The notes under the pieces were generated by a model. That model was given only the letters and a program-made list of their open reading frames with translations, was not told where the DNA came from and did not search any database. Positions 1,196-5,626 of a DNA stretch of 5,626 nucleotides are shown piece by piece; position 1 is the stretch's first letter; every line of letters begins with the position of its first letter. The position numbers were made by a program, and so were the translations under genes. The stretch is from an uncultured Clostridia bacterium (GTDB lineage: Bacteria > Bacillota_A > Clostridia > Christensenellales > Aristaeellaceae): assembly GCA_945871545.1 (NCBI GenBank), contig CAMBWJ010000139.1, positions 1-5,626 on the forward strand, read 5' to 3'.

Positions 1196-2878
1196 TCAGA
1201 GCAGCATCATCCGGGTTACAGCATCAAACACGCCGGTGGCCTCGAGGCCCTGGGCGATCTGGAAAGCGCTCACAGCGTCGGCAGTCGCCCTGTCGTATTC
1301 GCCGGTGCATTGATCCTCGCCGAGATAGCCCAGCTCCAGCAGCGCCTGCTGCATCTCCGCAACATCCTCGCCCGCCATGCATGCTTCATGCCGGTTGTAG
1401 GAGAAGGTGCGCGGCGCGGTTGCCGCCGTGGCGCGACGCAGCTCGGAGAGGTACCGGGCGGTCAGATCGCAGTTTACCCGGAGCACACCGTTCATCCGGA
1501 CGAAGGCATCGCCATAGCTGTCCACCATCGGCACATACCACGCCCGCCCCTCGAACGCGCTGCAGCAGGCCTCCTGATGGAACCTCAGCCCGGCCCGGGC
1601 ATAGCAGCCCTGCCAGATGCGCACCAGCTCGTCCTCGGTAAAGGCGCACAGCTCCCCGCGCGTGATCCGTCTCTCTCTGAGCGCATCGATGACCGCACCA
1701 ACCTCCGCGCTGTCGGGATTTCCGCTGCGCGCGTGGATCACCACCGAATCCGAAAAGCCTACGGACAGCGTGCTGTGTTCCGCAATCAGCTCCCGGCTCA
1801 CATCGCTGCCGATCCAATCGAACAGCTGCCGTGCGGGGCTGTCCGCGGGTTCATCCGCCCGGATCGCCACATAGGAGGTGGTCACGAAGGGATAGTTTCC
1901 GTTCTGGAAGTTCTCGGTGGTGGGCGCGTAGCCGTCCACATTGAACAGCTTCAGCGCAGCGTTGTCCTGCTCCAGCCTGGAATAGCGGGAGGAGACCCAC
2001 ACATCCCGATCCTCATAGCAAACCTGGTACCACGCCACATCCCGCTCGTCAAAGCGCGTGCGCCCCGCGTATTCCAGCGTGGTTCCCGCAGGCACGGCGG
2101 CCACAACGTCGTATTCCAGGCCGGAATAATCCCGAAGGTTGACGCTGCCCGTGGTCACGACCTTCGGCTTTTCCACCTCGTGGCTGAGGAACACGTTGCT
2201 CACGTAGGACATGATGTTGTAGCCGATGGAGAAGCGGTTTTCCATCACGTTCAGCGTGACGTCGCTCATGTCGTCGATCTCCTCCATCTTGTAGGGCGTC
2301 GCGCCGACGACCTCGCCCTCCTGAAAGCCCAGCGACTGGAAATCGGGCATCTCGTAGCCCGTCCACACCAGATTTTCAAACATCCGCTGGCTGCCGGACT
2401 CCGGATTGCGTATGTAGGCCACGATCTCGCCGCCGACGGGACAATCCCGAACGCCGTACCAGTCCGTAATGTCGCCCCGGTAGATGGAGCGGATCTCCGC
2501 GCTGGTGAGGTTCTGCGCCGGATTGCTGGCGTTGCCCATGAACACCAGGCCGTCGTAGCCGTAGATTTTCATCTCAATATCCACGCCTGCGTCGGCAAAG
2601 TACTGCATCTCGTCCGCCGTGGGCGCGATCAGGAAGATGACGTCCGCCTTGCCGTCGGCAAGGTTCAGCCACGCACCGTGGGTCTTGGAGCACATGGGCG
2701 CGGGGCCTTCCACCCCCTGTCCGGTGAAGTAGGCATAGATTGCATCCGTGATGGGAATGCGCGCGGTGGAATTGTCGATCTGCGGAAGCGACGTCAGGCG
2801 CTCCGCCAGGGCCATGCCGCCCAGCGCCACGCAGAGCGTCAGCAGTAGCGCCGCGCACCAGTACAGCTTGCACTTCAT
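1196..2878 (-). CDS. Secreted PstS-like binding protein with inserted SH3b domain, YARHG-like segment and peptidoglycan-binding domain
   Basis: This 560-residue protein has a Sec signal peptide (about 1-25, likely cut after ALA). The cysteine in it is not in a lipobox, so it is probably released or wall-bound rather than a lipoprotein. Residues about 30-235 and 307-380 together resemble a PstS-type phosphate-binding fold: DNSTARIPITDAIYAYFTG (35-53), LTSAEIRSIYRGDITDWYG (124-142), NPESGSQ (158-164), SIGYNIMSY (217-225), then NVDGYAPTTENFQNGNYPF (313-331). Between the halves, residues about 239-303 look like a bacterial SH3 domain (GSVNLRDYSG, VPAGTTLEY, WYQVCYED, VWVSSRY). Residues about 411-451 resemble a YARHG domain (CYARAGLRF, then AWYVP). 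Residues about 499-560 are a peptidoglycan_binding_1 domain (AEMQQALLELGYLG, TADAVSAFQ, GVFDAVTRMMLL). The ATG has AAGGGGGG 7 nt upstream. No Pst permease or ATPase is nearby, so wall-associated binding or sensing fits better than transport (inference). Phosphate as the ligand is unproven. Confidence 0.85.
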   Translation of the reverse strand: MKCKLYWCAALLLTLCVALGGMALAERLTSLPQIDNSTARIPITDAIYAYFTGQGVEGPAPMCSKTHGAWLNLADGKADVIFLIAPTADEMQYFADAGVDIEMKIYGYDGLVFMGNASNPAQNLTSAEIRSIYRGDITDWYGVRDCPVGGEIVAYIRNPESGSQRMFENLVWTGYEMPDFQSLGFQEGEVVGATPYKMEEIDDMSDVTLNVMENRFSIGYNIMSYVSNVFLSHEVEKPKVVTTGSVNLRDYSGLEYDVVAAVPAGTTLEYAGRTRFDERDVAWYQVCYEDRDVWVSSRYSRLEQDNAALKLFNVDGYAPTTENFQNGNYPFVTTSYVAIRADEPADSPARQLFDWIGSDVSRELIAEHSTLSVGFSDSVVIHARSGNPDSAEVGAVIDALRERRITRGELCAFTEDELVRIWQGCYARAGLRFHQEACCSAFEGRAWYVPMVDSYGDAFVRMNGVLRVNCDLTARYLSELRRATAATAPRTFSYNRHEACMAGEDVAEMQQALLELGYLGEDQCTGEYDRATADAVSAFQIAQGLEATGVFDAVTRMMLL

Positions 2879-3128: not shown

Positions 3129-4961
3129 TCACTTCAGGGTGATGTACTGCTCCGGCTGGGCGAGGACAGCGCCGCCCGCCCTGAAATGGTTCAGCCACAC
3201 ATCCTTCACCGGATCCTCGCCCTCCGTGAACGTGCGGCTTTCATCCGCAAGGAAGGGCGCAAAGTGCGCATATGTCGCCAGGCAGGTCACAGAGAAGCTG
3301 TCGTCATCCCCGATGTCCCTGCCATCCTTCCGCACCTTGGTCAGTGTGTAGCTCCCCTCGTCCTCCTGCACCTCGATGGCAACGCCGCTGACGATGGGCA
3401 GAGAGCCGCGGTTGAAGGGTATGAAGCCGCCTTCGATTCCTTCGACGCAGGCACGGATCGTCTCCTTCAGCTCCGCGCCGCTCATCTCCCGGTGGAAGGA
3501 CACCAGGCCGTTGGGCATAATCATGCTGCCCGCCATCTTTTCCGTGTAATCCGCCTGAAGCACGGAGCCCGTGAAGCTGTCGCCCGTCGCCAGCAGCACG
3601 TCGCTGCCATAGATCCCGCGCAGGGTGTTTGCCATGACCGAGTAGGCTTCGCTGCCGCCCTTGCTGTGGAAGATGGCGGAGTAGCCCTTCCCGGAGCTCA
3701 GGACGGTTTCGGCGGAAGCATCCCCGGGCTGGCGGAGCTGAGCGTCAAAGGCTGCGTATGCCTGCTGCGCGTCGTATTCGCCCGCAATCATCTTCGAGAC
3801 CACGTCCCTGGACACGGCGAAGAAATCATTGGAGGCGATGCGGATGTACATGTGGTTCTGCTCGATCAGCGGCCTCAGGTTCGCCAGATGCCCGGTCAGA
3901 TGAATGCCCACATCCTGGCTGTAGCTCAGAACGTCCCCGCTGGCGAGCACCGTCTGTCCCTCCTCGGAGAGCATCACATCCAGAATCTGCATCGCCTTCT
4001 CCCGGCGGCTATTGTCCTGTTCCAGATTGCGGTTCAGCGCCACCTGCAGGTAGGGCGTGGTCATCAGCCACTGCTCGCCATTCTGTCCGAAATAGGGCAG
4101 AAGCACCGTGTCTATCCCCTGGTTCAGAAATTCCAGCACCCGCGCGGAGCTGCCGGTAATCATGGCAACCTCGCCCCTTGCGAACATGTTGATCACAGGG
4201 GTATAGCCCAGCTCCAGTACATCGGGGGTCAGGTTCACATCCCGAATAAACTGCTCCATCCGTTCAAACACGCCCGGCCAGACGACCTCATCCAGCCCGA
4301 CGCGCTCCGTACTTGCGGGATCGGAATAGGCCATGCGCCACCTGCATCCTTCCAGGGAGGTGAGCTCCGGGATGGACAGGCCCTGCAGGGCCTCCATGCA
4401 GGTATAGTCGTAGACAAAATCGCCCACATGCCCCCGGATGCCCACTTCTTCAAAGGCCTGGCACGCGGAGACGAAGCTCTCGTAATCCGTGGGCAGGGGA
4501 ATGTTGTACTCCTCAAACAGGCCACGGTTGGTGACGAAGCCGTGCACATCGGCGCTCAGCGGCAGCCAGTTGATGCTGCCATCCTCATTCGTGAAGCTGG
4601 CGAGATAGGCGTCATAGAAGGCGCCGGCCTCGGAGGTCGTGGACAGATCCATCAGGCTGTCCTTCAGCGGCGCGGCATCATGCAGCGAAAAGCGGCAGCA
4701 GGTGATGATGTCCGGCAGCGCGCCGTTCTCATTCATGAATTTGTAGAAGTCCAGATCATTGTTGCCCACGACAAACTGGATGTTCATATCCGGCAGCTGG
4801 GACTGGATGTAGGGCGCGTAGCTTTCGTACATCGCACCGGTCCACAGATACACCGTAATCGTGTCCGCATCTTCCTTCGCGGTTTTGTTTGCTGCGCAGC
4901 CCGTAACCAGCGCCAGTACCATGATGAGAGACAGCAGTAAACCGATCCATTTCCTCTTCAT
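3129..4961 (-). CDS. Lipoprotein: extracellular solute-binding domain fused to 5'-nucleotidase C-terminal domain
   Basis: The protein has 610 residues. Residues 1-22 are a lipoprotein signal peptide with lipobox VTGC, so Cys22 would be lipidated and the protein held on the outer face of the membrane. Residues about 33-412 match a family 1 type ABC solute-binding fold (TITVYLWTG, ALPDIITCCRFSLHDAAPL, GLFEEYNIPLPTDYESFVSAC, MFARGEVAMITGSSA, AMQILDVMLSEEGQTVL). Most such proteins stop near this point. Here residues about 436-600 follow and resemble the 5'-nucleotidase C-terminal (substrate-specificity) domain: VMANTLRGIYGSDVLLATGD, PNGLVSFHREMSGAELKETI, SGVAIEVQEDEGSYTLTKVR, DSFSVTCLATYAHF. The metallophosphatase half that does catalysis in real 5'-nucleotidases is absent, so a binding role is more likely than an enzyme. 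The ATG at 4961 is chosen because AAGGAG lies 8 nt upstream and the signal peptide begins there; an in-frame ATG at 5054 lacks a Shine-Dalgarno and would bury the signal. No permease is adjacent. The gene is divergent from a TetR regulator. Confidence 0.85.
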   Translation of the reverse strand: MKRKWIGLLLSLIMVLALVTGCAANKTAKEDADTITVYLWTGAMYESYAPYIQSQLPDMNIQFVVGNNDLDFYKFMNENGALPDIITCCRFSLHDAAPLKDSLMDLSTTSEAGAFYDAYLASFTNEDGSINWLPLSADVHGFVTNRGLFEEYNIPLPTDYESFVSACQAFEEVGIRGHVGDFVYDYTCMEALQGLSIPELTSLEGCRWRMAYSDPASTERVGLDEVVWPGVFERMEQFIRDVNLTPDVLELGYTPVINMFARGEVAMITGSSARVLEFLNQGIDTVLLPYFGQNGEQWLMTTPYLQVALNRNLEQDNSRREKAMQILDVMLSEEGQTVLASGDVLSYSQDVGIHLTGHLANLRPLIEQNHMYIRIASNDFFAVSRDVVSKMIAGEYDAQQAYAAFDAQLRQPGDASAETVLSSGKGYSAIFHSKGGSEAYSVMANTLRGIYGSDVLLATGDSFTGSVLQADYTEKMAGSMIMPNGLVSFHREMSGAELKETIRACVEGIEGGFIPFNRGSLPIVSGVAIEVQEDEGSYTLTKVRKDGRDIGDDDSFSVTCLATYAHFAPFLADESRTFTEGEDPVKDVWLNHFRAGGAVLAQPEQYITLK

Positions 4962-5097
4962 TGCGTTCGCTCCTTGTCTTTCATTTTTTCTTCTCAGGCC
5001 ATTGCGACAAAATCGCGCTCTGCTGCAAAAGCCGGGGCCGTATGGAAATTGCATTTCAAAAAAGCGATGAATTTTATAAGTATACGTAAAGTTTCCC
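4962..5097 (-). other. Long 5' leader of the lipoprotein gene
   Basis: If transcription begins near 5097, the untranslated leader is about 135 nt. It contains small stems: GAAAT/ATTTC (5045-5049 with 5053-5057) and GCGA/TCGC (5004-5007 with 5013-5016), the latter flanked by GGCC at 4997-5000 and 5036-5039. I recognise no known riboswitch, and no U-rich terminator hairpin is evident. Confidence 0.4.
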
Positions 5098-5243: not shown

Positions 5244-5626
5244 GTGCACACCAGAGAACGGATTCTGCTGGAGGCCCTGCGCCTGTTTTCCCGGAAGGGC
5301 TATGACGCGGTGAGCGTCGAGCAGATTGCGGAGGCCGTGGGCGTCAAGGCCCCGTCGCTGTACAAGCACTACCGGAGCAAGCAGGACATCTTTGACGCGA
5401 TCTTCGAGGAGACGGCGAAGCGCTACGGGGCATTCACGGACTCCATTTCCGTCCATATGGGCGATTCCGCGCAGGATTTGCAGGTATTCCGCAGCATCAC
5501 GGCGGATGGTCTGGTGGAGAAGGTCAAGTCCCTGATTTCCTACTCCCTCCACGACGAATTTGTCAGCCAGTTCCGGCGGATGATGACCATCGAGCAGTTC
5601 CGCTCCCCGGAGCTGTCGGCGCTGTA
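5244..5626 (+). CDS. TetR/AcrR family transcriptional regulator, N-terminal part (runs off right edge)
   Basis: The visible 127 residues include the whole TetR DNA-binding domain. Helix 1 is in RERILLEALRLFSRKGYDAV (4-23), and the helix-turn-helix is SVEQIAEAVGVKAPSLYKHY (24-43), followed by RSKQDIFDAIFEE. From about residue 60 begins the variable ligand-binding domain, which is incomplete here. The start is a GTG with AGAGAGGAG (5226-5234) 9 nt upstream. No in-frame ATG gives a complete helix 1, so the GTG is needed for a functional domain. Members are usually repressors released by a small molecule. The divergent solute-binding lipoprotein gene and the regulator's own promoter are the likely targets (inference). 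The ligand cannot be predicted. Confidence 0.92.
   Translation, partial: MHTRERILLEALRLFSRKGYDAVSVEQIAEAVGVKAPSLYKHYRSKQDIFDAIFEETAKRYGAFTDSISVHMGDSAQDLQVFRSITADGLVEKVKSLISYSLHDEFVSQFRRMMTIEQFRSPELSAL

What the first reader, a model, noticed from the sequence alone, without database searches (positions are those of the whole stretch)
3162..3656. Solute-binding lipoprotein fused to a 5'-nucleotidase C-terminal domain without the catalytic half
Residues about 436-600 follow the plan of the 5'-nucleotidase C domain: an ANTLRGIYGSDVLL segment, then MSGAELKETI, then SGVAIEVQEDEG, then DDSFSVTCLATY. In known enzymes such as UshA this domain binds the nucleotide and an N-terminal metallophosphatase domain cuts it. 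Here the partner is an ABC-type solute-binding domain instead. One chain would then hold two ligand-binding units at the membrane, perhaps one for a nucleotide-like ligand and one for a sugar or oligomer. I know of no described function for this arrangement.
Basis: partly seen in the sequence, partly recalled or inferred. Interest (0 to 1): 0.7.

Follow-up and report, generated by a model that had tools for sequence, protein, structure and literature searches.

The report
Sugar-binding sensor lipoprotein with nucleotidase-type domain
A gut-type bacterium's surface protein joins a sugar-binding domain to the substrate-holding half of a nucleotide-cutting enzyme, and related genes mostly sit beside a signalling kinase and never, in our sample, beside a transporter, so it is probably part of a sensor rather than an importer or an enzyme.

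The parts
3129..4961 (-). Gene for the 610-aa SBP / 5'-nucleotidase-C lipoprotein (start at 4961, not the longer mechanical ORF start at 5054)
   Evidence: ribosome-binding AAGGAG at 4970-4975, - strand; conserved lipobox
4896..4961 (-). Signal peptide and lipobox, residues 1-22, LVTGC
   Evidence: sequence; Cys22 at least 90% conserved in 62 sequences
3717..4865 (-). Solute-binding domain, residues 33-415
3132..3716 (-). 5'-nucleotidase C-type domain, residues 416-610
   Evidence: profile search of PDB, fold, Pfam PF02872 in relatives
3564..3587 (-). Segment TGDSFTGS (residues 459-466) where the pocket-keeping branch has NGGGIRAS; the Arg is a Thr here
   Evidence: alignment, (residue correspondence approximate at this divergence)
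3504..3515 (-). Segment PNGL (residues 483-486) where pocket-keeping members have PF[DN]N; base-stacking Phe absent
   Evidence: alignment; role of Phe429 from PMC7922932 (passages); that this column is Phe429 is my alignment and recall
3228..3290 (-). Segment residues 558-578 where pocket-keeping members have DYMAG...GNGDG[YF]; aromatic and GDG absent
   Evidence: alignment
1196..2878 (-). Neighbouring gene downstream: PBP_like_2 (PstS-like) + SH3_3 + peptidoglycan-binding domain; takes the place held by the kinase gene in many relatives
   Evidence: (no kinase beside the window copy)
5244..5624 (+). Divergent TetR-type regulator, cut by the window end

Best explanation
It is an extracellular, membrane-anchored ligand-binding protein that works with a histidine kinase. 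Shown: a carbohydrate-type SBP fused to a 5'-nucleotidase C domain on a predicted lipoprotein; no catalytic domain; relatives mostly encoded directly upstream of a membrane hybrid histidine kinase (often a weak Cache-type sensor match and PAS, then HisKA, HATPase and one or two receiver domains), in several clusters as two such SBPs in a row before one kinase. Inferred: the SBP half closes on a sugar or oligosaccharide, and the loaded protein contacts the kinase's extracellular sensor domain and changes its activity. The C domain, which in the window's branch has lost the nucleoside-pocket motifs, serves as a rigid docking or dimerisation module rather than a second pocket. The window copy has no kinase beside it; it would have to act on a kinase encoded elsewhere, or be a leftover of a lost pair.
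For: Kinase beside 59 of 74 unique family genes and ABC permease beside 0 of 74 (5 undetermined, 10 neither). Three of the 74 (L071, L075, L077) came in through a kinase search; without them 56 of 71. Short SBPs: 17 of 21 beside permeases, 4 of 21 beside kinases. In the distant pocket-keeping branch a kinase follows directly in 10 of 11 hits, the 11th being cut by a contig end. Kinase architecture by Pfam. SBP N-domain and kinase-sensor distances correlate in 16 chosen pairs (r 0.92; none of 2000 permutations as high), though co-inheritance alone would also give this. Two loci keep kinase relics right after the SBP gene: L002 and L035. Genomes of five kinase-less loci (L001, L007, L008, L014, L028), and of L015 whose gene is cut by a contig end, hold a related kinase at 38-52% identity, in L008 on the same contig about 9 kb downstream. 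Characterised precedent in a Clostridium: CuaDSR (PMC10384115, abstract and passages).
Against: The window gene itself has no kinase within the sequence given; neither do nine other family genes, seven of them of the window's own type (L001, L002, L007, L008, L014, L022, L028). In L014 the next gene is a GGDEF diguanylate cyclase instead. Short SBPs without the C domain can also sit beside kinases (4 of 21), so the C domain is not needed for such pairing. Gene adjacency is not proof: two P. aeruginosa kinases were not activated by the SBPs encoded near them (PMC11113362, passages). No ligand, binding or regulation data exist. Docking by the C domain is inference only.
Confidence: 0.62

Rival explanations
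1. It is the substrate-binding subunit of an ABC sugar importer whose permeases are encoded elsewhere; the C domain is an ornament.
For: SBP_bac_1 and SBP_bac_8 over cut-off; closest folds are importer-type SBPs for raffinose, xylooligosaccharides and chitin oligosaccharides; the window copy has no kinase beside it.
Against: Permease beside 0 of 74 family genes versus 17 of 21 short SBPs.
Confidence: 0.15
2. Two-pocket receptor: SBP half binds a sugar and the C domain binds a nucleoside or nucleotide, perhaps both ends of one nucleotide-sugar.
For: A distant branch of the same fusion keeps NGGGIR, PF[DN]N and GNGDG motifs: 88 of 120 listed members match all three patterns, and its C domain matches T. 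thermophilus 5'-nucleotidase at E 3.7e-29. UshA stacks the base between Phe429 and Phe498, and CpdB's isolated C domain holds a substrate site (PMC7922932, abstract and passages).
Against: In the window branch 0 of 120 listed members match any of the three patterns (the patterns were drawn from the other branch).
Confidence: 0.12
3. The window copy is an orphan left after loss of its kinase gene and is decaying or has another role.
For: L002 carries a relic of the kinase C-terminus (84-aa match at 67%; 91% over 55 aa) directly downstream of its SBP gene; L035 likewise keeps kinase residues 763-961 in pieces after an SBP gene end; the L008 copy has in-frame stops in its first 75 codons. Eight window-type genes including the window have no kinase beside them.
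Against: The window ORF is intact and full length; dN/dS against five relatives is about 0.07-0.12, though dS exceeds 1 and part of that history may predate any loss; no kinase relic is found in the window.
Confidence: 0.2
4. It is a nucleotidase or nucleotide-processing enzyme.
For: A relative bears a database name beginning 'Trifunctional nucleotide phos' (P0171, cut in the listing).
Against: No metallophosphatase family in the window protein; the C half alone is inactive in CpdB (PMC7922932, abstract).
Confidence: 0.02

Closest known systems
CuaDSR three-component system of Ruminiclostridium cellulolyticum (PMC10384115, abstract and passages seen)
   Same: A lipoprotein SBP encoded beside a membrane histidine kinase, in a Clostridium; a sugar SBP used for sensing; CuaD binds CuaS.
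   Different: CuaD is a 410-aa SBP; no C-terminal 5'-nucleotidase domain is mentioned in what I saw. CuaS is a 627-aa class I kinase with a separate regulator CuaR; the kinases here that were scanned are hybrids with receiver domains. No kinase lies beside the window copy.
TorT/TorS and XylFII/LytS (their papers seen only as reference-list entries in PMC9602780; details recalled)
   Same: Extracytoplasmic binding protein presents ligand to a membrane kinase; TorS is a hybrid kinase (recalled).
   Different: Binding proteins of another SBP type, without a 5'-nucleotidase C domain (recalled).
UshA / CpdB / NadN 5'-nucleotidases
   Different: No catalytic metallophosphatase half; base-binding motifs lost in the window branch.
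Sugar SBPs such as RafE and 3quf (PDB titles)
   Same: Fold and Pfam families of the N half.
   Different: Extra C-terminal domain; no permease genes beside the 74 sampled family genes.

Membership tests
5'-nucleotidase C-terminal domain (PF02872) | Window protein itself over the Pfam gathering score | tested here: not met
   No match at E<=1 for whole protein or C-terminal 193 aa
5'-nucleotidase C-terminal domain (PF02872) | Homology shown through the family | tested here: met
   P0100, P0103, P0119, L032 and the second SBP of L012 over cut-off; profile against PDB, 3ivd E 1.5e-9
5'-nucleotidase C-terminal domain (PF02872) | Fold | tested here: met
5'-nucleotidase C-terminal domain (PF02872) | Base-binding aromatic clamp and GGGIR / PFxN / GDG motifs | tested here: not met
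   Absent in the window; 0 of 120 listed close relatives match any pattern
5'-nucleotidase / UDP-sugar hydrolase enzymes | N-terminal metallophosphatase domain | tested here: not met
   No metallophosphatase family listed for the window protein
SBP_bac_1 / SBP_bac_8 solute-binding proteins | Pfam score over cut-off and fold | tested here: met
ABC importer binding subunit | Permease genes in the neighbourhood | tested here: not met
   0 of 74 family genes, window included; 17 of 21 short control SBPs
SBP-histidine kinase three-component system | SBP gene beside a membrane histidine kinase gene: family | tested here: met
   59 of 74; 56 of 71 without kinase-derived loci
SBP-histidine kinase three-component system | SBP gene beside a membrane histidine kinase gene: the window copy | tested here: not met
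   only 572 bases are available upstream of the longest ORF form
SBP-histidine kinase three-component system | Physical binding of SBP to the kinase sensor domain and ligand-dependent signalling | not testable with these tools
   needs bench work

The most novel reading that the evidence does not exclude
Gut Clostridia use a whole class of two-domain sensor lipoproteins in which a nucleotidase substrate-binding domain was cut away from its catalytic half and joined to a sugar SBP. In one branch both pockets work and the kinase reads a nucleoside/nucleotide (or a nucleotide-sugar held at both ends) from outside the cell. In the window's branch the nucleoside pocket was lost and the domain became the part that docks on the kinase's extracellular sensor domain, with two paralogous SBPs competing for or pairing on one kinase.
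Probability: 0.22. Interest if true: 0.8.

Novelty: new variant of a known kind. Interest (0 to 1): 0.58.

Why it matters
Members that carry a database name are called solute-binding or ABC substrate-binding proteins, 5'-nucleotidase C-terminal domain proteins, or even a 'Trifunctional nucleotide phos...'. If they are kinase-bound receptors, then a large family has been placed in the wrong functional class: 7980 proteins scored at E<=1e-10 against the window protein, of which only the best 120 were seen, and 168 against the other branch. Gut Clostridia would then have a set of extracellular sensors for host or diet molecules that can be tested directly. The branch with the nucleoside motifs would be a candidate extracellular nucleotide sensor built from an enzyme's non-catalytic half.

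Tried and rejected
Tried without result. (1) Direct Pfam and NCBIfam scans of the window protein for a 5'-nucleotidase domain: nothing at E<=1. (2) phmmer of the single C domain against the PDB: nothing at E<=10. (3) Finding the window's own genome: none is held; in 197 genomes of the family of G007 the closest proteins were 77% and 80% identical. The PstS-like neighbour was not found in 197 genomes at E<=1e-60 (no positive control, so this shows nothing). (4) Kinase relic beside the window gene: none at E<=1e-3. (5) Literature: no paper; 148 papers, 20 seen; none; one paper, on fungal receptors; 111 papers, 20 seen; 25 papers, 20 seen. The one listed paper holding all three terms (PMC8477406) lists the domains as separate genes (passages). 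None of the listed titles and abstract openings, nor the passages I saw, describes this fusion or its pairing with kinases. The library holds open-licence PMC papers only.

Considered and rejected. Assembly chimera: nearly all of the 120 listed homologs carry the chain at about full length. Enzyme: no catalytic domain. A nucleotide pocket in this protein: motifs absent. A single origin of the fusion: in a tree of N domains (18 of the 20 controls; two were dropped for short matched spans) the short SBPs fall on one side of a branch but with support of only 76/80 and with long branches meeting, so this is left open. The C-domain identity of the 590-607 aa relatives (L081, L086, L087, L089) is by length and alignment only; L081 gave no PF02872 match, and L018:62-1894 no Pfam match at all.

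Cautions on counts. In the 74-gene count, rows were de-duplicated by a 60-aa central string, rows under 350 aa were left out, and some rows are fragments or lack a C-domain hit (for example L067, 489 aa, without one). The kinase rule was: among the two nearest same-strand ORFs downstream within 2.6 kb, or nearest upstream within 600 bases, by a phmmer score over 80 bits to two kinases; only the kinases were checked by Pfam. Twelve of the regions were long-frame SBP hits that I chose; eight came from the kinase search. L089 is counted as 'neither' although its next gene is another SBP at a contig end. The control set is 20 short-frame hits that I picked (16 with permeases, 4 with kinases) plus one short SBP in L026. 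The pocket patterns were written from the pocket-keeping branch, so 88 of 120 is partly circular; 0 of 120 in the window branch is the informative figure. The 16 pairs are chosen window-type pairs, not all of them.

Full report
WHAT IS THERE. The gene runs from 4961 to 3129 on the minus strand and encodes 610 residues. The start at 4961 has AAGGAG eight bases upstream, so the longer mechanical ORF from 5054 is not the likely protein. It begins with a signal peptide and lipobox (LVTGC22). Two Pfam solute-binding families pass their cut-offs in the first 340 residues. The finding's coordinates 3162-3656 correspond to residues 436-600, as claimed.

HOW WIDESPREAD. A search of 5.8 billion proteins scored 7980 candidates and all 7980 matched at E<=1e-10; only the best 120 are listed. 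These are mostly about 600-640 aa long and covered over nearly the whole query, so the two-domain chain is the normal form among them. Genome contigs gave 36 loci; the record titles name Clostridia, Clostridiales, Lachnospiraceae, Oscillospiraceae, Blautia, Faecalicatena, Bacillota or just 'bacterium', with one Eggerthellaceae, and several samples are colon, caecum or rectum. A second, distant branch (L080, L082, L083 and relatives; 168 proteins at E<=1e-10) has the same order with an unmistakable PF02872 domain (E 8e-36 in L082); it was found in 10 of 299 genomes of one family at E<=1e-30. In six genomes searched with PF02872 all six matched, with 14 places in all; two of these look like ordinary 5'-nucleotidases by their N-termini (L037, L038).

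NEIGHBOURS. In most loci a histidine kinase gene follows directly. The partners scanned carry HisKA, HATPase and one or two receiver domains; many also have PAS and a Cache-domain match below Pfam's cut-off. Several clusters have two SBP-nucleotidase-C genes in tandem before one kinase (L009, L010, L011, L012, L016, L018, L019, L036). Counted over 95 unique SBP genes: of 74 in the fused family, 59 have a kinase beside them, 0 a permease, 10 neither, and 5 cannot be judged. Three of the 74 were found through the kinase; without them it is 56 of 71. Of 21 short SBPs, 17 have a permease and 4 a kinase, so kinase pairing is not confined to chains with the C domain. In the distant branch the kinase follows directly in 10 of 11 hits, and the 11th is cut by a contig end. 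In two clusters (L010, L023) a receiver-HTH protein lies upstream, and near the SBP genes of L014 and L008 lies a receiver-EAL-GGDEF protein; in L014 the gene directly after the SBP is itself a GGDEF protein. The outputs may thus differ.

THE WINDOW COPY. Its downstream neighbour is a PstS-like protein with SH3 and peptidoglycan-binding domains (1196-2878), not a kinase. Seven other window-type genes also lack an adjacent kinase: L001, L002, L007, L008, L014, L022, L028. L002 keeps a piece of the kinase's C-terminus right after the SBP gene, and L035 keeps pieces of kinase residues 763-961 after an SBP gene end, so in at least two loci the kinase was lost or broken secondarily. Of seven such genomes searched with the kinase's sensor part (L001, L002, L007, L008, L014, L028, and L015, whose gene is cut by a contig end), six hold a related kinase at 38-52% identity; L002's gave only the relic (52 aa, 79% identical) and weak matches. 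In L008 that includes a kinase on the same contig, about 9 kb downstream of the SBP gene, but the L008 SBP gene itself has in-frame stops in its first 75 codons. The window protein is intact and has dN/dS of about 0.07-0.12 against five relatives, with dS above 1, so this is only a rough sign of constraint.

THE POCKET. UshA stacks the base between Phe429 and Phe498 (PMC7922932, passages). The distant branch keeps NGGGIR, PF[DN]N and DYMAG...GNGDG[YF]; the window branch has TGDSFT, PNGL and TCLAT...DESR there. By pattern, 88 of 120 listed members of the distant branch match all three motifs and 0 of 120 of the window branch match any. Residue-level correspondence at this divergence is approximate, and which column holds UshA's two Phe is my alignment and recall.

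MECHANISM. The best reading is a kinase-linked receptor: ligand closes the SBP half, and the lipoprotein then acts on the kinase's extracellular domain. The precedent is CuaDSR in R. cellulolyticum, where a 410-aa lipoprotein SBP binds cellobiose and its kinase CuaS (PMC10384115, abstract and passages). Caution: in P. aeruginosa two kinases were not activated by the SBPs encoded near them, while 10 of 11 characterised SBP-kinase couples are encoded together (PMC11113362, passages). The role of the C domain is open. Distances of N domain and C domain correlate with those of the kinase sensor part across 16 chosen pairs (r 0.92 and 0.85), but shared descent would do the same.

NOVELTY. SBP-kinase systems are known. 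I saw no description of an SBP fused to a 5'-nucleotidase C domain in the listings of nine answered searches within an open-licence library. Sequence databases already show the domain order in many members of the distant branch and in three of the 120 listed close relatives, and name them as solute-binding proteins or by the nucleotidase domain.

Noticed in passing
window 1196-2878 (-): A PstS-like PBP_like_2 protein fused to a bacterial SH3 and a peptidoglycan-binding domain, so two unusual binding-protein fusions lie side by side.
   Followed up: partly
L009, L010, L011, L012, L016, L018, L019, L036: Tandem pairs of SBP-nucleotidase-C lipoproteins followed by a single hybrid kinase; the second SBPs that were aligned are 35-39% identical to the window protein.
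   Followed up: partly
L095, L097, L099, L105: Short SBPs (434-484 aa) without a C-domain hit that also sit beside kinases, suggesting a wider SBP-kinase class in these genomes.
   Followed up: no
L080, L082, L083, L111-L120: Distant branch of the fusion with apparently intact nucleoside-binding motifs; a candidate extracellular nucleoside or nucleotide sensor.
   Followed up: partly
L002:3577-3828 and L035:746-1130: Relics of the kinase gene directly downstream of SBP genes (L002: 84-aa match at 67%, 91% over 55 aa; L035: pieces of kinase residues 763-961).
   Followed up: yes
L014:3288-4904, L014:5009-7600, L076:2702-5284: A GGDEF protein directly after one SBP gene and receiver-EAL-GGDEF proteins near two, a possible cyclic-di-GMP output.
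   Followed up: partly
P0171 (Eisenbergiella tayi): A database name beginning 'Trifunctional nucleotide phos' (cut in the listing) on a protein with SBP and 5'-nucleotidase C domains and no metallophosphatase family in its precomputed Pfam list: a likely misannotation.
   Followed up: no
window 5244-5624, L003:16109-16723, L029:2379-2987: TetR-type regulators (by N-terminal resemblance only for the last two) near members of this family in three loci; may be chance.
   Followed up: no
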